Assembly: GCA_013042165.1 (NCBI GenBank) | Contig: JABDQT010000157.1 | Location: 1 to 16,094, forward strand | Direction: 5' to 3' | DNA length: 16,094 nt | Source of the DNA: Kiritimatiellales bacterium | Lineage (GTDB): Bacteria; Verrucomicrobiota; Kiritimatiellia; Kiritimatiellales; Pontiellaceae | Shown here: positions 834 through 14,546 of the stretch, piece by piece | Layout of the letters: each line of letters opens with the position of its first letter | Position numbering within the stretch: position 1 is the first letter of the stretch | Made by a program: the position numbers and the translations under genes | Notes under the pieces: generated by a model | The model's database searches: none | Told to the model about the DNA's origin: nothing | What the model saw: the letters and a program-made list of their open reading frames with translations, nothing else

Positions 834-1196
834 ATGATCCAGCAATTCATCAACACAACCAAGGCGCTGTCCGACTCCAACCGGGTCCGTACACTGGCGG
901 CGATGCGTGACCGGGAACTCTGTGTTTGCCGCATCGTGGAATTGCTACAGCTTGCTCCATCGACTGTTTCAAAGCATTTATCTATTCTCAAGCAGACGGG
1001 TTTAATCGAGGGGCGCAAGGAAGGGCGCTGGATGCACTACCGTCTTCCCGATGATAGATCATCTGATGGATGGAAGGCGCTGGACTGGGTTTTCCAGTCG
1101 CTGGAAAACGTCAAAGAGATCGAGGCTGATCAAAAGCGGCTTAAACAGATCCTGAAAATTGATCTGAATGAACTGACACAAATCTACAAGAAGTGA
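834..1196 (+). CDS. arsR: ArsR/SmtB-family metalloregulator with CVC arsenic-type site
   Basis: Winged-helix repressor that releases DNA on binding a soft metal or metalloid. The 120-residue product starts MIQQFINTTKALSDSNRVR. It carries ELCVCRIVELL around residues 26-36, which is the CVC motif used for As(III)/Sb(III) sensing in classical ArsR. The recognition helix region APSTVSKHLSILKQTGLIEG and the wing GRKEGRWMHYRL follow. The reading frame extends to a TTG at 816, but that codon lies inside an inverted repeat and lacks a ribosome site, so I chose ATG 834. The next gene starts 9 bp after the stop. Family and DNA-binding role are clear. The inducer (arsenite, organoarsenical or another thiophilic ion) is inferred from the CVC motif and the downstream genes. 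Confidence 0.9.
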   Translation: MIQQFINTTKALSDSNRVRTLAAMRDRELCVCRIVELLQLAPSTVSKHLSILKQTGLIEGRKEGRWMHYRLPDDRSSDGWKALDWVFQSLENVKEIEADQKRLKQILKIDLNELTQIYKK

Positions 1197-1205
1197 GCAA
1201 ACCCT

Positions 1206-1370
1206 ATGAAAAATGCAGTGATCGTCGTCGTTGTCATCGCAACCATTACCGGTCTCGTAGTCTACAAGAAGCGGAGCGGCGATGGCGAAACTTCAGGCAG
1301 TTGCCCCTGCTCCATGATGCAGCCGGCGGAAACCAATCACACGGAAACAGGAACCACCTCGGGTGAGTGA
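1206..1370 (+). CDS. 54-residue single-pass membrane peptide with CPC motif
   Basis: Small gene lying between arsR (9 bp gap) and the CcdA/ArsG-like gene (8 bp overlap), in the same direction. It has one hydrophobic segment, residues about 4-20 and rich in Val and Ile, followed by KKR (21-23). By the positive-inside rule this would leave the C-terminus in the cytoplasm. The polar tail contains GSCPCSMMQ: Cys33, Pro34, Cys35, Met37 and Met38, a plausible soft-metal or redox site. The tail has two Glu, a His and many Thr/Ser. I do not recognise a family. Tight packing and the GTGAGTGA overlap with the next start suggest translational coupling. It could be a metal-handing or thiol partner for the downstream membrane proteins, or a vestige of a thioredoxin-like gene. 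Function is inference. Confidence 0.7.
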   Translation: MKNAVIVVVVIATITGLVVYKKRSGDGETSGSCPCSMMQPAETNHTETGTTSGE

Positions 1371-2061
1371 TCTTTTCCAGTTTCTGGAATATGCCTTGAC
1401 GCACTCTACCCTGGCAGCGTTCGCGGCCGCCTTTGCCTGGGGTGTTTGCAGCATGGTACTCAGCCCCTGCCACCTTGCAGCCATTCCTCTGATCATTGCC
1501 TACGTCAACGAACAGAACAGCTCGTCGGTGCGCAGCGCGGCCTGGCTGGCCTTCGTTTTTGCCTTCGGCATCCTCATCACCATCGCGCTGGCCGGCGTGG
1601 CAGCTGTTTCGCTGGGCTATGCGGTCGGGGATACAACGCAAGCCGGTACCTTTGTCGTCAGTGCGGTTTTCATCCTCTTTGGCCTGGATATGGTGGATGT
1701 CATCACGATTCCCTGGTTCGGCGCCAAAAAGGAGTCGGTGAAAGCCAAGGGCGCACTCGGTGCTCTGGTGCTGGGTCTGGTGTTTGGATTGGCCGCCGGC
1801 GCCTGTACGTTCGCATTTCTGGCTCCGATTCTGGCCATCGCATTCGACGCCGGCGGATCCAATGTGATATTCGGATGCCTGTTGGTGACTCTTTTTGGTG
1901 TCGGTCATACTTCAGTACTTGTATTCGCAGGCATCTCGGCCGAACGAGCCGCACACTTTGCCAGGTGGAACCGTGCAACGAAGGCCAGCCGGAAAATCCG
2001 CTTTGTTCTGGGCGTGCTGCTGATCGGCATCGGTCTGTACCTTTTATACAAAGCCATTTAG
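1363..2061 (+). CDS. CcdA/DsbD-like membrane protein, ArsG-type arsenical efflux candidate
   Basis: Integral membrane protein of 232 residues, with about six hydrophobic segments, of the cytochrome c biogenesis CcdA/DsbD transmembrane superfamily. It starts at GTG 1363, with AGGAA nine bases upstream. Key features are VCSMVLSPCHLAAIPL (Cys29 and Cys36), AGACTFAFLAP (Cys148) and GCLLVTLFGVGHTS (Cys172). The SPC and GAC cysteines sit where CcdA proteins keep their reactive pair. Within the superfamily, the SPCHLAAIPL form and the arsR/permease neighbourhood resemble ArsG, which is reported in Shewanella to export trivalent aromatic arsenicals together with ArsE and ArsF. No ArsE or ArsF is visible here. 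The alternative is a plain thiol-electron carrier serving an unknown periplasmic partner. Superfamily is confident, substrate is not. Confidence 0.8.
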   Translation: MSDLFQFLEYALTHSTLAAFAAAFAWGVCSMVLSPCHLAAIPLIIAYVNEQNSSSVRSAAWLAFVFAFGILITIALAGVAAVSLGYAVGDTTQAGTFVVSAVFILFGLDMVDVITIPWFGAKKESVKAKGALGALVLGLVFGLAAGACTFAFLAPILAIAFDAGGSNVIFGCLLVTLFGVGHTSVLVFAGISAERAAHFARWNRATKASRKIRFVLGVLLIGIGLYLLYKAI

Positions 2062-2067
2062 GAAATC

Positions 2068-3027
2068 ATGATGTTCAACTGGCTCGATAATCTGATTACC
2101 AAACTTGTTGAAGGCGCATTCGGCATGTCTGTGGAAACACAGCTGGGCAGCAGCATCCATTTCTTTTTCTACGACGTTGTGAAGATCCTCATTCTGCTGT
2201 CCGTGATGATATTCGGCATCTCTTATCTGCGGAGCTATTTTCAGCCACAAAAGACCAAGGAACTGCTGGAGCGCATCCACGGGCCGAAAGCGCATCTTGC
2301 CGCTTCGCTGCTCGGGATCATCACACCCTTCTGCTCCTGCTCATCGGTGCCGATTTTTATCGGGTTTGTCGAAGCCGGCATTCCACTGGGGGTCACCTTT
2401 TCATTCCTGGTGACCTCCCCCATCGTGAACGAGGCGGCCTTCGCGATCCTGCTGGCGGCCTTCGGCGGAAAGGTGGCGGTCACGTATGCGGTCATGGGCG
2501 TGCTTATCGGCGTGGTGAGCGGAATGATCATAGGGCGCTTCAATCCCGAAAAATATCTGGAAGCGGAAGCCTTTAAAGGAGAAGGTTTCAATAAAATCCG
2601 GCCGGACATGAAACAGAAGGAACGGCTCGCCTATGCCGGCGAACACACCATCGACATTCTAAAGCGTATCTGGATCTATCTACTCATCGGCATCGGCATC
2701 GGGGCCGCGATCCACGGCTGGGCCCCGGGCGATATTCTGGCCAAATATGCCGGTTCCGATAATCCGCTCAGTGTCATCATTGCGGTGCTCTGCGGCATAC
2801 CGCTCTATTCCAACGCGCTCGGCACCATCCCGATTGCGGAAGCGCTGATCGGGAAAGGCGTTGGCCTGGGTACTGCCCTTGCGTTCATGATGGCCGTCAC
2901 GGCCCTATCCCTTCCGGAAATGGTGATGCTGCGCAAGGTCATGAAGCCACGGCTTATCGGCACCTTCGTTGCCACCGCCGCGATTGGCATCCTGCTCGTG
3001 GGCTGGATGTTTAACCTGATTTTCTGA
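2068..3027 (+). CDS. ArsP/YraQ-family permease (DUF318), probable organoarsenical exporter
   Basis: Polytopic inner-membrane permease of 319 residues with about eight hydrophobic segments. It carries the family's hallmark TPFCSCSSVPIFIGF (86-100) with vicinal Cys89 and Cys91, then TSPIVNEAAFA (116-126). The second half repeats the architecture with CGIPLYSNALGTIPIAE (about 243-259). A charged cytoplasmic loop with KEYLEAEAF-like content lies around 158-190. ArsP proteins of this family export trivalent organoarsenicals such as MAs(III), and the CSC pair is the likely metalloid site. It lies 6 bp after the ArsG-like gene and 2 bp before the DUF167 gene, so it belongs to the arsR-led operon. 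A second in-frame ATG at 2071 is better spaced (7 bases) from AGGA than the first. Family is certain, substrate inferred. Confidence 0.88.
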   Translation: MMFNWLDNLITKLVEGAFGMSVETQLGSSIHFFFYDVVKILILLSVMIFGISYLRSYFQPQKTKELLERIHGPKAHLAASLLGIITPFCSCSSVPIFIGFVEAGIPLGVTFSFLVTSPIVNEAAFAILLAAFGGKVAVTYAVMGVLIGVVSGMIIGRFNPEKYLEAEAFKGEGFNKIRPDMKQKERLAYAGEHTIDILKRIWIYLLIGIGIGAAIHGWAPGDILAKYAGSDNPLSVIIAVLCGIPLYSNALGTIPIAEALIGKGVGLGTALAFMMAVTALSLPEMVMLRKVMKPRLIGTFVATAAIGILLVGWMFNLIF

Positions 3028-3029
3028 CC

Positions 3030-3326
3030 ATGCCCTGTTTTGACGAAAAGGACGGATATATTCTATTGAACGTACGGGTTGTTCCGAATGCGTCTTGCGA
3101 TGGCATCCAGGGTTTGATGGGCGATGCACTGAAAATCCGCATTCAAGCCCCGCCTGTCGACGGCAAGGCCAATGCCTATCTCATCAAATACCTTTCCCGG
3201 CACTGGAATATTTCCCGGCGCAGTATTCGGATTATCGCGGGTGAGACCGGGCGCAGCAAGCGGCTCCGGATCGACCAGCCATCCGATGAATTGCGCAAAG
3301 AGTTGTTGTCAATCGAATCCGGATAG
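3030..3326 (+). CDS. DUF167 (YggU-family) protein
   Basis: Small cytoplasmic protein of 98 residues, the usual length for DUF167/YggU. It shows the family signature in order: LNVRVVPNASCDGIQG, then GDALKIRIQAPPVDGKANA (about residues 32-50), then IRIIAGETGRSKRLRID near the C-terminus. No molecular function is firmly established for the family. The gene is often found beside unrelated housekeeping genes (for example yggT). Here it sits 2 bp after the permease and 16 bp before znuA, bridging the arsenic-type and zinc modules. I see no clear ribosome site, so translation probably depends on coupling to the preceding stop. Confidence 0.92.
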   Translation: MPCFDEKDGYILLNVRVVPNASCDGIQGLMGDALKIRIQAPPVDGKANAYLIKYLSRHWNISRRSIRIIAGETGRSKRLRIDQPSDELRKELLSIESG

Positions 3327-3342
3327 GCCATCAATACCGCCC

Positions 3343-4221
3343 ATGAAATATGCTACAGCAGTATTGGCCGCAGTCGTACTATCGGGCTGCTCGGATGAAG
3401 GCAGGCTTTCACCGGCTTCCGGACTCACCGCGTTCGTCAGCATCCCGCCGCAGGCCGGCTTGCTGAAGGAACTCGCCGGCGACCGGGCCGAGATCCACAC
3501 ACTGGTTGGCGAAGGTCAATCCCCCCACGCCTATGAACCCACGGCGCGGCAACTGGCAAAGCTGGGTGAAGCCCATATGCTTTTTACGATCGGCGTATCA
3601 TTCGAACAGGCATTGCTGAATAAGATTAGTCCCCTCTATCCCGACCTGGCCATTGTCGAGACCGATGCCGGGGTCGCCCGGCGCACCATGCCGCATGAGC
3701 ATCATGGCGTGGAGTGCGAGCACGACCATGGGGCCAAGGATCCGCATATCTGGCTTCATCCGCTTCATAGCATGGCCGTGGCTCGCAACATGTTGCAGGC
3801 TCTCGAAGATGCCGATCCCGATAACGCGGACTTTTACCGTCAAAACTTTGACGTGCTGGCCCAAAAACTGGATCGCTTGCACGCTACCATACTGCAACGG
3901 CTTAAGCCTTTCGAGGGCAGCCGCTTTTATGTATTCCACCCTTCTTTCGGCTATTTTGCGGACGAATATGGCTTGGAACAGGTTTCGATTGAACTTGATG
4001 GAAAGTCTCCCTCCCCGCGCCAGCTGGCCGGTTTGATCGAACAGGCAAAACAAGATGGCGCCAGAGTGGTTTTTGTGCAAAAGCAGTTTCCGCAGGATAG
4101 CGCCGAAGCAGTTGCGACAGCAATTGGCGGAACCGTTGTTCAGGTGGATCCGCTGGCCGAGGATGTGGTTGCCAACCTGCAAGAAATCGCACAGGGTATC
4201 GAGCAGGCGCTGGCACCATGA
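3343..4221 (+). CDS. znuA: Zinc ABC transporter substrate-binding lipoprotein ZnuA-type
   Basis: Captures Zn(II) outside the inner membrane and passes it to ZnuB. The frame is open from 3172, but the segment before 3343 overlaps the DUF167 gene. ATG 3343 gives a lipoprotein signal MKYATAVLAAVVLSGC with lipobox LSGC (Cys16), so I chose it. The 292-residue product has the cluster A-I fold landmarks: His62 in SPHAYEPT, His135 in DPHIWLHP, His199 in VFHPSFGYFADEYG and Asp269 in QVDPLAED. These are the three His plus one Asp of zinc-type proteins. A short His/Asp/Glu-rich loop at 118-129 (HEHHGVECEHDH) is typical of zinc rather than manganese binders. It overlaps znuC by 4 bases (ATGA). The His set and loop favour zinc, but specificity is not proven. 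Confidence 0.93.
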   Translation: MKYATAVLAAVVLSGCSDEGRLSPASGLTAFVSIPPQAGLLKELAGDRAEIHTLVGEGQSPHAYEPTARQLAKLGEAHMLFTIGVSFEQALLNKISPLYPDLAIVETDAGVARRTMPHEHHGVECEHDHGAKDPHIWLHPLHSMAVARNMLQALEDADPDNADFYRQNFDVLAQKLDRLHATILQRLKPFEGSRFYVFHPSFGYFADEYGLEQVSIELDGKSPSPRQLAGLIEQAKQDGARVVFVQKQFPQDSAEAVATAIGGTVVQVDPLAEDVVANLQEIAQGIEQALAP

Positions 4222-4961
4222 ATCCGCACCCGATCCAAATCGAAAATATGGATTTCTCCTACGGCCCCATCGGGGTGCTGGAGCAGGTGAACCTAACGAT
4301 CAGCGATCATGAGTTTATTTCAGTGGTCGGGCCCAATGGCGGAGGGAAAACCACCCTGCTGAAAATGCTGCTGGGTTTGCTGGAACCTCAAAAAGGTTCT
4401 GTTTCCGTTTTCGGAAAATCCCCGGAGCAGGGCAGAAAATGGATCGGTTATCTCCCGCAGCACGCCAGCCTTGATCCCAAGTTTCCGGTCACCGCCACCG
4501 ATGTTGTCCTGCTGGGCCGGCTTGGAAAAACCCGCACGCTCGGCTTCTATACCAAAGCCGACCACGAAGCCGCGCGGAACATGCTGTCGCGGGTCGGGAT
4601 GGATAAACTGAGAAACCGTCCGCTGGCCGCGTTATCCGGCGGACAGCGCCAGCGGGTATTGATTGCCCGCGCCCTGGTTTCGGAACCCCGGCTGCTGCTG
4701 CTGGACGAACCGACATCCAGCCTCGATGATTATGTGGAACGCGAGCTGTATGATCTGCTCAAGGAGCTGAACCGGGATCTTACCATCGTTGTGGTTTCGC
4801 ACGATATCGGTTTTGTGTCCCGTTATGTGGAGAAGGTGGTCTGCGTAAACCGCCAGGTACACATACACCCCGTGGGTGAAGTCAACGAATCCATCATTCA
4901 CGACATGTACGGTGAACACGTCCATATGGTGCGGCACGATCAGGAGCACGCGCATGACTGA
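4218..4961 (+). CDS. znuC: Zinc ABC transporter ATP-binding protein ZnuC-type
   Basis: Cytoplasmic ATPase that powers the ZnuABC importer. The 247-residue product has Walker A GPNGGGKTT (38-46), Q-loop YLPQHASL (79-86), signature LSGGQRQR (139-146), Walker B LLLLDEP (159-165), D-loop SSLD and switch histidine VVSHD near 192-196. The long Q-loop-side segment FPVTATDVVLLGR and a C-terminal tail rich in His (YGEHVHMVRHDQEHAHD) are usual for zinc/manganese-type ABC ATPases. It starts 4 bases inside znuA and ends 8 bases inside znuB, so all three are translationally coupled. Confidence 0.95.
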   Translation: MNPHPIQIENMDFSYGPIGVLEQVNLTISDHEFISVVGPNGGGKTTLLKMLLGLLEPQKGSVSVFGKSPEQGRKWIGYLPQHASLDPKFPVTATDVVLLGRLGKTRTLGFYTKADHEAARNMLSRVGMDKLRNRPLAALSGGQRQRVLIARALVSEPRLLLLDEPTSSLDDYVERELYDLLKELNRDLTIVVVSHDIGFVSRYVEKVVCVNRQVHIHPVGEVNESIIHDMYGEHVHMVRHDQEHAHD

Positions 4962-5784
4962 GTTTTTTCAGGCCCTGCTCCAGCACAGCTTCCTGCAGCA
5001 TGCCCTGCTCGCCGGATTGCTGGTGAGCATCTCCTGCGGTATCGTGGGCACCTATGTGGTCACGCGTCGCATTACCTATCTCGCCGGCGGGATTGCCCAC
5101 TGCGTACTCGGCGGCATGGGGTTCGCCCGCTACATGCAGGTGGTACACGACTGGGCCTTCATGACGCCCATGCTCGGGGCCATGCTTGCGGCATTGCTCG
5201 CGGCACTGGTTATCGGCTGGGTGAACATCAAGGCTCGGGAGCGGATCGATACGGTCATCAGCGCCTTCTGGGGGCTCGGCATGGCCATCGGCATCCTTTT
5301 TATTGCCAAGACACCCGGATACGGCGAAGACCTGATGGCCTACCTCTTCGGCAATATTCTACTGGTCACTCAACGCGACCTGCTGGTCATCGGCCTCCTC
5401 GATCTGGTCATTATCGCCACCGCACTGCTGTTTCACAAACAGTTTGTGGCGGTCTGTTTCGACGAGGAGTTTGCCCGGCTGCGCGGCATCAATACCAGGC
5501 TGTTCTATTTTCTGATGCTCGCGCTCGTTGCGCTGAGCGTCGTGCTGATGGTTTCGGTCGTCGGGATTGTGATGGTGATCGTCATGCTGACACTCCCCGC
5601 CGCGATCGCGGGCAGGTTTTGCCTTCGGATGGGTTCCATGATGGCCTTGGCCGCCGGGCTCTGTGCCCTGCTGACCTTCGGCGGGCTTGCCGTGAGCTAT
5701 CAGCCCGACCTCCCTGCCGGGGCAACCATCATTGTGCTTTCAGGAATCGCCTACCTGCTGTCACTCCTGTTCAAACGCTCCTGA
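4954..5784 (+). CDS. znuB: Zinc ABC transporter permease ZnuB-type
   Basis: Membrane channel subunit of the zinc importer, ABC-3 family, 276 residues with seven to nine hydrophobic segments. The frame is open from 4876, but ATG 4954 has AGGAG seven bases upstream and begins MTEFFQALLQHSFLQHALLA, a normal ABC-3 N-terminus. Landmarks are TYLAGGIAHCVLGGMG (the site where many relatives have a D-A-L-S-H-A type motif), AYLFGNILLVT, the cytoplasmic loop FDEEFARLRGIN that contacts the ATPase, and LTLPAAIAGRF. It is the last gene of the packed arsR-to-znuB run. No T-tailed hairpin follows in 5785-5905, so read-through into the next pair is possible. Confidence 0.94.
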   Translation: MTEFFQALLQHSFLQHALLAGLLVSISCGIVGTYVVTRRITYLAGGIAHCVLGGMGFARYMQVVHDWAFMTPMLGAMLAALLAALVIGWVNIKARERIDTVISAFWGLGMAIGILFIAKTPGYGEDLMAYLFGNILLVTQRDLLVIGLLDLVIIATALLFHKQFVAVCFDEEFARLRGINTRLFYFLMLALVALSVVLMVSVVGIVMVIVMLTLPAAIAGRFCLRMGSMMALAAGLCALLTFGGLAVSYQPDLPAGATIIVLSGIAYLLSLLFKRS

Positions 5785-13944: not shown

Positions 13945-14454
13945 CTAGTTATTATTACCCTGCCGATTTTTCCGGCGTTTCTGCGTGGCTTCGCGCATGG
14001 CAGCCCGCTCCTCATCGCTGAGCGTTCCGTCGCCATCCGCATCAAAGCGCTTCATCATTTCTTCGCGTGAAGGCCGTTCGCCACCCGACCGGCCGCCCCG
14101 GCGGGTTTCCATCTCGGCCCGCATTGCTTCGCGTTCGGATTCGCTGAGCTGTCCATCACCATCGGTATCAAACCGCTTCATCGCTTCATCGCGGGAAGGC
14201 CGTTCGCCATCCGGCCCGCCCCGGCGTCCGCCTTGCGACTCGCGGGCTTCCTGTGCGGCCGCACGCTCTGATTCGCTCAACACGCCGTCGCCGTCGGTAT
14301 CAAAGCGTTCCATAAACTGTCCGCGTGTCGGCCGGTCGCCTTTGCCCTGCCTACCGGCGCGTTCACCCTTCGATTCTTCTTCTGCCGCTGCAATAGACAT
14401 CGCACCCGCGACTGCCATGCTCAGACCGATCGTTTTCAATACCCGCGTATTCAT
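13945..14454 (-). CDS. Secreted three-EF-hand calcium-binding protein
   Basis: 169-residue exported protein. Signal peptide MNTRVLKTIGLSMAVAGAMS (1-20) with cleavage after IAAA (about 24). The frame opens upstream at 14481, but ATG 14454 has a perfect AGGAGG six bases upstream. The mature part is made of three canonical EF loops: DTDGDGVLSESE (52-63), DTDGDGQLSESE (96-107) and DADGDGTLSDEE (138-149). Each is preceded by RPxRxxxMxRF and separated by Arg/Gly/Glu-rich linkers. All Ca ligands at loop positions 1, 3, 5, 9 and 12 are present. An odd number of hands suggests dimer formation or independent loops. No enzyme domain is attached, so the role (calcium buffer or envelope scaffold) is unknown. 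It lies downstream of the DUF6941-type gene on the same strand. Confidence 0.9.
   Translation of the reverse strand: MNTRVLKTIGLSMAVAGAMSIAAAEEESKGERAGRQGKGDRPTRGQFMERFDTDGDGVLSESERAAAQEARESQGGRRGGPDGERPSRDEAMKRFDTDGDGQLSESEREAMRAEMETRRGGRSGGERPSREEMMKRFDADGDGTLSDEERAAMREATQKRRKNRQGNNN
13999..14334 (-). repeat. Three in-gene tandem repeats encoding EF-hand units
   Basis: Three copies of a unit of about 26 residues, spaced 44 and 42 residues apart, with loop positions 14266-14301, 14134-14169 and 14008-14043. Copies two and three share RPSR-x-E-x-MKRFD and are closest to each other in their lead-in, while copies one and two share the DTDGDG-x-LSESER loop. This indicates duplication within the gene. 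Confidence 0.85.
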
Positions 14455-14546
14455 GCAATACCTCCTGTTGTTGAGTTGCATTTCAGTTGCTGGATATTAA
14501 ACGGACGGCGCAGTGGAATATTGTGCGATTTTTTCAGAACCGGAAA

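What the first reader, a model, noticed from the sequence alone, without database searches (positions are those of the whole stretch)
1206..1370. 54-residue membrane peptide with CPC-SMM tail between arsR and an ArsG/CcdA-like gene
As I recall them, related clusters encode a thioredoxin- or ArsF-like partner at this place. Here there is only a one-pass peptide with Cys33-Pro-Cys35 and Met37-Met38, predicted to expose its tail to the cytoplasm. It could hand As(III) or another soft metal to the permeases, or exchange electrons with the CcdA-like protein. It overlaps the next start by 8 bases, so it is likely translated. It is short enough to be missed by gene finders.
Basis: partly seen in the sequence, partly recalled or inferred. 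Interest (0 to 1): 0.7.

Follow-up and report, generated by a model that had tools for sequence, protein, structure and literature searches.

The report
Thioredoxin shrunk to membrane-anchored CPC peptide
In an arsenic-type gene cluster of an uncultured Pontiella-like bacterium, the place where relatives carry a membrane-anchored thioredoxin holds only a 54-residue remnant of it (anchor plus a bit of the active site), and the neighbouring electron-transfer protein has changed unusually fast.

Summary
The ORF is as described: 1206-1370, 54 aa, one hydrophobic segment, C33-P-C35, M37-M38, overlapping the next start by 8 nt. I found no second example: one candidate, itself, in a word-based search of 5.8 billion proteins, and none before 152 other arsG genes with a readable upstream slot. 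In the four nearest relatives with a readable slot, and in 129 of 159 arsG genes overall, a thioredoxin lies directly upstream. The peptide's anchor matches those thioredoxins better than 139 control anchors; its CPC-SMM-QP tail resembles their active site CxxCxMMxP. It is most likely an in-frame-shrunken thioredoxin of this slot. ArsG departs at 7 of 53 near-invariant positions, the most of 158 sequences, including loss of the Pro before the second conserved Cys, yet keeps both cysteines. It is 53-59% identical to four kin ArsGs that are 78-84% identical to each other, while the adjacent permease is 86-89%. Two metagenomic ArsGs (78-80%) share the Pro loss, so this ArsG lineage is maintained. 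Whether the peptide still exchanges electrons or is a leftover is open.

The parts
834..1196 (+). arsR-type metalloregulator (ELCVCRI cysteine pair; that this is the As(III)-type motif is recalled)
   Evidence: NF033788; PF01022
1206..1370 (+). 54-aa ORF in the thioredoxin slot: probable shrunken membrane-anchored thioredoxin
1215..1265 (+). hydrophobic anchor (residues about 4-20), homologous to the N-terminal anchor of the relatives' thioredoxins
   Evidence: 64 against 53 for the best of 139 controls
1302..1325 (+). CPCSMMQP (residues 33-40), probable remnant of the thioredoxin active site CxxCxMMxP with one residue missing
1363..2061 (+). ArsG/CcdA-like (DsbD_TM) membrane protein, GTG start overlapping the peptide by 8 nt; strongly diverged
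1468..1470 (+). Cys36, first conserved Cys, retained
   Evidence: 157 of 157 ungapped, window included
1801..1806 (+). Ala147-Cys148: Pro replaced by Ala (Pro in 156 of 156 other ungapped sequences), Cys retained
1909..1911 (+). Thr183 where 154 of 156 others have Cys
2068..3027 (+). ArsP_1-type permease, not unusually diverged

Best explanation
The 54-aa ORF descends from the membrane-anchored thioredoxin gene that sits between arsR and arsG in its relatives. In-frame deletions removed most of the linker and nearly all of the thioredoxin fold (131 to 54 residues), leaving the anchor, a shortened active-site motif (CPC-SMM-QP) and the stop that overlaps the arsG start. In relatives the most likely pathway is cytoplasmic reductant to CcdA-like ArsG to periplasmic anchored thioredoxin to an arsenic-related target (inferred from the CcdA family). 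Here the fold that does thiol exchange is gone. Most likely the peptide is still made because arsG translation is coupled to it, it sits N-in with the CPC tail in the periplasm, and it has at best a weak residual thiol role. ArsG has drifted away from its lost partner but keeps both conserved cysteines and probably passes electrons to another thiol protein. Shown: slot, homology of the anchor, resemblance of the motif, ArsG divergence. Inferred: translation, topology, electron path, loss of partner function.
For: Slot: of 159 arsG genes 129 have a thioredoxin within 700 bases upstream, 15 further upstream, 9 none in the held DNA (window included), 6 are at a contig end (corrected for one broken gene counted twice). 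The nearest four readable (L003, L004, L005, L006) have 130-149 aa anchored thioredoxins. Anchor 64 against 53 for the best of 139 controls. Tail against active sites: 0 of 1000 shuffles reach the mean over 110 slot thioredoxins, 14 of 1000 over the 87 sister ones. 0 of 87 sister thioredoxins have a linker Cys, and six juxtamembrane Cys stretches of other thioredoxins fit no better than 343-1688 of 2000 shuffles. The stop codon lies in the same frame and place relative to arsG as in L003 (alignment). ArsG: 7 of 53 near-invariant columns changed, maximum of 158; nearest kin 0, 1, 0, 2, 1. Identity 53-59% to L144-L146 and L148, which are 78-84% among themselves, against permease 86-89%; dN 0.345 against 0.105 for ArsG but 0.064 against 0.061 for the permease (window-L144 against L144-L145). 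P0003 and P0004 share Ala147 and lack Cys183. In the held genome, 86% complete, the only match to the anchored thioredoxin P0090 is a TrxA-like frame at 26%.
Against: Tail resemblance to the nearest kin is only moderate (maximum over 87: 29 of 1000; 29 of 500). DNA alignment gives no support. Eight other loci lack an upstream thioredoxin without a comparable ArsG shift (none is in the top-12 list, which reaches down to 2 departures), so loss of the neighbour alone does not explain the ArsG change. L147, which has its thioredoxin, also has a fast ArsG (dN 0.32 to L144; its permease is faster too, 0.137). The tree places the window in an ArsG subclade with other long branches (SH-aLRT 92), so the divergence may be older than the deletion or come from cassette replacement. 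The slots of P0003 and P0004 could not be seen.
Confidence: 0.64

Rival explanations
1. Functional miniature redox partner: the anchored CPC tail replaces the thioredoxin domain, taking electrons from ArsG in the periplasm, and ArsG adapted to it (Pro147 to Ala, Cys183 lost, Arg86 lost).
For: As aligned, the deletions flank and spare the active-site motif. ArsG keeps Cys36 and Cys148 and is maintained in three known sequences that share Ala147. By contig-length matching, 0 of 9 ArsG clusters of the window's subclade (window's own left out) but 6 of 12 of the sister group could be paired with one of the 120 listed thioredoxins (weak, thought of afterwards).
Against: No second example of the peptide. 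A CxC without a fold would be a poor and unselective thiol exchanger (general knowledge). Positions 86 and 183 vary within the lineage (Y/H/L; T/V/V), which looks like relaxation rather than re-tuning.
Confidence: 0.22
2. Soft-metal chaperone: the CPC-SMM tail binds As(III), Cu(I) or similar and passes it to the permease.
For: [quoted passage not shown]). Cluster with an ArsR-type regulator and an ArsP_1-type permease.
Against: MM fits the thioredoxin motif; only two Cys, where PF12669 peptides have a Cx3-5Cx2-3Cx6-8C motif (PMC8749426, passages); tail probably periplasmic (inference); no recurrence found.
Confidence: 0.08
3. Assembly or binning artefact: a deletion in the contig, or a chimera, made the short ORF.
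For: MAG of 329 contigs, 86% complete.
Against: P0001 and the window's ArsG are each listed on two contigs (independence unknown). The ArsG next to it is itself strongly diverged over its length and has 78-80% relatives elsewhere, which an assembly error would not make. Frame and stop are intact.
Confidence: 0.05
4. Unrelated short leader ORF whose only role is translational coupling to arsG.
For: 8-nt overlap; no conserved relative of the tail as a short peptide.
Against: The anchor matches the thioredoxin anchors above 139 controls, and the tail resembles the active site.
Confidence: 0.04

Closest known systems
CcdA + thioredoxin + redox-active disulfide protein 2 set of ars operons (Castillo and Saier 2010, PMC2963123; passages read)
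   Same: Thioredoxin-like and CcdA-like genes in an ars-type operon; four sister loci of the window have arsR-thioredoxin-ccdA-permease.
   Different: Here the thioredoxin is cut to 54 aa without its fold; no redox-active disulfide protein 2 gene follows the permease (DUF167 starts 3 bases behind it).
ArsEFG (Chen, Zhang and Rosen 2019; seen only as a reference in PMC9144182; details recalled)
   Same: The CcdA-like protein scores to NCBIfam ArsG NF040495 at 47 bits.
   Different: Far under the curated cut-off of 200 bits; the two relatives' slot proteins tested (P0090, P0111) match thioredoxin models only at E 1e-5 in NCBIfam.
[quoted passage not shown]
   Same: Short, one anchor, Cys behind it, beside a metal-type transport gene.
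   Different: 15.2 bits against cut-off 27; two Cys instead of four; other neighbours. PMC8749426 (passages) says it is unanswered whether those ORFs give functional peptides.
ResA/CcmG-type thioredoxins reduced by CcdA (PMC4460558, passages)
   Same: Thioredoxin-fold protein outside the membrane kept reduced by a CcdA: likely working model for the relatives.
   Different: Substrate differs, and the window's version has no thioredoxin fold.

Membership tests
Thioredoxin (PF00085/PF13098) | thioredoxin fold with CxxC | tested here: not met
   P0001 has no thioredoxin hit in Pfam at E 1 or 0.1; relatives P0090 and P0111 hit PF00085 at 38.1 and 36.5 bits
Anchored thioredoxin of the arsR-arsG slot | gene position and overlap with arsG | tested here: met
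Anchored thioredoxin of the arsR-arsG slot | homologous N-terminal anchor | tested here: met
Anchored thioredoxin of the arsR-arsG slot | active-site CxxCxMMxP | tested here: inconclusive
   CPCSMMQP lacks one residue between the Cys; resemblance 0 of 1000 shuffles (mean over 110 slot thioredoxins) and 14 of 1000 (mean over 87 sisters)
ArsG (NF040495) | score over curated cut-off of 200 bits | tested here: not met
   47.1 bits; three of five kin tested 51-60 bits, two not listed at E 1e-5
CcdA/DsbD_TM (PF02683) | domain over gathering score and two conserved Cys | tested here: met
   53.9 bits against 27.1; Cys36 and Cys148 kept
CcdA/DsbD_TM (PF02683) | Pro beside the second Cys (as in the sampled kin) | tested here: not met
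   Ala147; 156 of 156 other ungapped sequences have Pro
FeoB-associated Cys-rich (PF12669) | score over 27 bits | tested here: not met
   15.2 bits
Metallochaperone | metal binding by the tail | not testable with these tools
   needs bench work

The most novel reading that the evidence does not exclude
A CcdA-family electron transporter whose dedicated thioredoxin partner has been pared down to a 54-residue membrane-anchored CxC peptide that still does the thiol exchange, with compensating changes in the transporter.
Probability: 0.2. Interest if true: 0.75.

Novelty: new variant of a known kind. Interest (0 to 1): 0.42.

Why it matters
If the peptide works, it would be a very small natural replacement for a thioredoxin fold next to a CcdA and would show what ArsG needs from its partner. 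If it is a leftover, it is a natural experiment on how a CcdA evolves once its partner is lost: which conserved residues (Pro147, Cys183, Arg86, Thr81) serve the partner and which (Cys36, Cys148) serve the core reaction.

Tried and rejected
Protein search with the peptide: one candidate, itself (only proteins of about 30-94 aa that share 5-residue words can be found this way). Peptide search in 58 genomes: best outside hit at E 0.011 in G033, not followed up; two weak hits (G010 C104, G052 C150) lay a few hundred bases upstream of arsG inside longer ORFs and pointed to the thioredoxin N-termini. Viral contigs: 8 pattern matches, none a relative. Origin of the Cys pair from the juxtamembrane CC-GG-C motif of other thioredoxins: rejected, 343-1688 of 2000 shuffles as good for six stretches. 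DNA-level homology of slot pieces: no better than shuffles. Moved thioredoxin gene in the same genome: only a TrxA-like frame on C155 (26%); Thioredoxin_2 hits on C175, C86 and C155 are a 147-aa protein (C175), the long DsbD-type frame that also matches ArsG (C86) and a 106-aa TrxA (C155). Paper searches; I saw no report of a shortened thioredoxin in this slot in their listings or in the passages read, but no search aimed at exactly that, and only open-licence papers are held. No structure prediction was run: a 54-residue peptide alone would not decide between the readings.

Errors found on checking: one search cut the ArsR of L146 to one residue, so the ArsR unique-change counts and ArsR tree of that call are void; only ArsR pair identities not involving L146 are used. 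One search counts one broken arsG gene (L117) twice, so its 160 entries are 159 genes and its 130 adjacent ones 129; L114 has two genuine copies. In one search the active-site stretch of L016 ended in eight residues that I had filled in without seeing them (the display was cut there); its active-site figures are replaced, which cuts the stretches out of the files. The new figures strengthen the tail argument somewhat, so I raised the main confidence from 0.62 to 0.64.

Full report
Observation. The ORF at 1206-1370 is as described: 54 aa, one hydrophobic stretch, KKR, CPC-SMM, stop TGA overlapping the GTG start of the next gene by 8 bases. Neighbours: ArsR-type regulator (834-1196), DsbD_TM/CcdA-like protein (1363-2061; 53.9 bits to PF02683, only 47 bits to NCBIfam ArsG with cut-off 200), ArsP_1-type permease (2068-3027), DUF167 (3030-3326) and a Zn/Mn-type ABC set (about 3340-5784). 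I call the CcdA-like protein ArsG for short. The window lies in a MAG of 1.85 Mb in 329 contigs. Its nearest named kin are Pontiella-type bacteria: L050, which matches the G003 contig in length, is titled Pontiella sp.; L112, which has the same ArsG DNA as L025 (G004, same genus), is titled Pontiellaceae.

The form is not a family that I could find. A search of 5.8 billion proteins returned only the peptide itself (limited to proteins of similar length that share 5-residue words). I surveyed the place upstream of arsG (loci; ten partial or contig-edge rows were not fetched for it). Its 160 entries are 159 genes, because one broken gene was counted twice: 129 have a thioredoxin within 700 bases upstream, 15 have one further upstream in the held DNA, 9 have none there (the window and 8 others) and 6 are cut by a contig end. 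No other locus shows a short anchor + CxC ORF before arsG: the scan (28-95 aa, ending between 250 bases before and 40 behind the arsG start) lists five other short hydrophobic ORFs in four loci, and the one with a CxC (L133) has it inside the hydrophobic stretch. The 8 without thioredoxin have other genes upstream, such as ACR3-like transporters behind a methyltransferase-like gene or an ABC ATPase (gene names recalled from sequence).

What the slot holds in the nearest kin. In L003, L004, L005 and L006 (ArsG 59, 56, 53 and 50% identical) the order is arsR, a 130-149 aa anchored thioredoxin, arsG, followed by the permease. L007/L148 starts inside arsG and cannot be read. Aligned with them, the peptide follows their N-terminus (MK-hydrophobic-KK), then skips linker and first strand, then has CPCSMMQP where L003 has C-T-A-C-T-M-M-E-P, then lacks the rest; its stop sits at the same place relative to arsG as in L003. 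The anchor scores 64 against the anchors of 87 sister thioredoxins; the best of 139 other hydrophobic N-termini scores 53. Tail: against the active sites of 110 slot thioredoxins (of 130 adjacent entries; the pattern missed 20) 0 of 1000 shuffles reach the mean and 0 the maximum, and for 97 of 110 single thioredoxins at most 10 of 1000 shuffles reach the score; against the 87 sister thioredoxins 14 of 1000 reach the mean, 29 of 1000 the maximum, and only 16 of 87 single ones have at most 10 of 1000. Earlier runs: 52 of 5000 against L003, 29 of 500 for the best of 87 whole sister sequences. So the resemblance is good to the family and moderate to the nearest kin. The competing origin, the juxtamembrane Cys cluster of other thioredoxins of the order, fits no better than shuffles, and none of 87 sister thioredoxins has a linker Cys. 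At DNA level nothing stands out.

The partner changed too. Among 158 ArsG sequences (one per locus) the window departs at 7 of 53 columns that are at least 97% conserved in the others, the largest number of all (next 5, 4, 4; median 0; nearest kin 0, 1, 0, 2, 1): S40A, T81A, R86Y, G92T, L110M, P147A, C183T. P147 sits beside the second conserved Cys and is Pro in 156 of 156 other ungapped sequences. Cys36 and Cys148 are kept. Against L144, L145, L146 and L148 the window's ArsG is 53-59% identical while these are 78-84% among themselves; the permease beside it is 86-89% against 88-92%. Against the more distant L147, ArsG is 49% for the window and 60-62% for those kin, so part of the excess is on the window's side. 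Nonsynonymous change, window-L144 against L144-L145, is 0.345 against 0.105 in ArsG but 0.064 against 0.061 in the permease; synonymous sites are near saturation, so no precise ratio is claimed. L147, which has its thioredoxin, is also fast in ArsG (0.32 to L144), though its permease is faster as well (0.137). ArsR is 64-72% against 73% between L144 and L145. The protein search with ArsG found P0003 (80%) and P0004 (78%), both with Ala147 and Val183, so the altered ArsG is a maintained lineage, not a decaying frame. In the tree the window groups with them (99) inside a subclade of 10 rows (SH-aLRT 92) in which Arg86 is replaced in 9 of 10. The slots of these relatives are out of reach here. 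A weak hint: matching contig lengths between the ArsG list and the 120 listed thioredoxins pairs 6 of 12 sister-group clusters but 0 of 9 of the window's subclade; thioredoxins ranked below 120 are unseen and the test was thought of afterwards.

Against a simple story: the 8 other loci without a neighbouring thioredoxin are not among the 12 most departing ArsGs, so the loss of the neighbour alone does not force the change; divergence of the ArsG subclade may be older than the deletion, or the thioredoxin-arsG pair may have been replaced as a cassette.

Mechanism. In CcdA systems electrons go from cytoplasmic thioredoxin through CcdA to a thioredoxin-fold protein outside the membrane such as ResA/CcmG (PMC4460558, passages). 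[quoted passage not shown] The exported look of several slot thioredoxins (signal-peptide-like N-termini in L024 and L031; KKKGRR loop in L008) makes a periplasmic thioredoxin the better reading, and hence a periplasmic tail for the peptide; this is inference. With the fold gone, the peptide most likely persists as anchor and coupling ORF with at best a slight thiol role, and ArsG hands electrons to something else or less specifically. The bolder reading, that the CPC tail has taken over, is not excluded: as aligned, the deletions flank and spare the motif, and ArsG keeps its cysteines and stays under constraint.

Verdict.

Noticed in passing
L120, L166, L170 (upstream of arsG): arsG directly behind an ACR3-like transporter and a methyltransferase-like (ArsM-like, names recalled) gene, without a thioredoxin: a second arrangement of ArsG in the class.
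   Followed up: partly
L016, L020, L025, L028, L029, L030: Anchored thioredoxins of other genus and order members carry an extra Cys cluster (mostly CC-GG-C or C-xG-C type) just behind the anchor, absent from the linkers of 87 sister thioredoxins; possible metal or redox relay.
   Followed up: partly
L014, L023, L026, L066 (and a shorter form in L027): Slot thioredoxins with a Cys-rich stretch (ACGCxxGxCC; CGCGGG in L027) before the anchor.
   Followed up: no
window 3030-5784: DUF167 and a Zn/Mn-type ABC transporter follow the permease in one direction; they are not apparent behind the permease in the ORF lists of L144, L145, L147 and L148.
   Followed up: no
P0013, P0019 (proteins): ArsG relatives with Ser at position 183 and His at 86 but Pro147 kept: intermediate states between the usual ArsG and the window's.
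   Followed up: partly
L117 1166-1890: arsG broken into two frames in this contig, with a thioredoxin upstream.
   Followed up: no
window 13945-14481 (-): 178-aa protein with repeated RFDxDGDGxLSxxER units (EF-hand-like).
   Followed up: no
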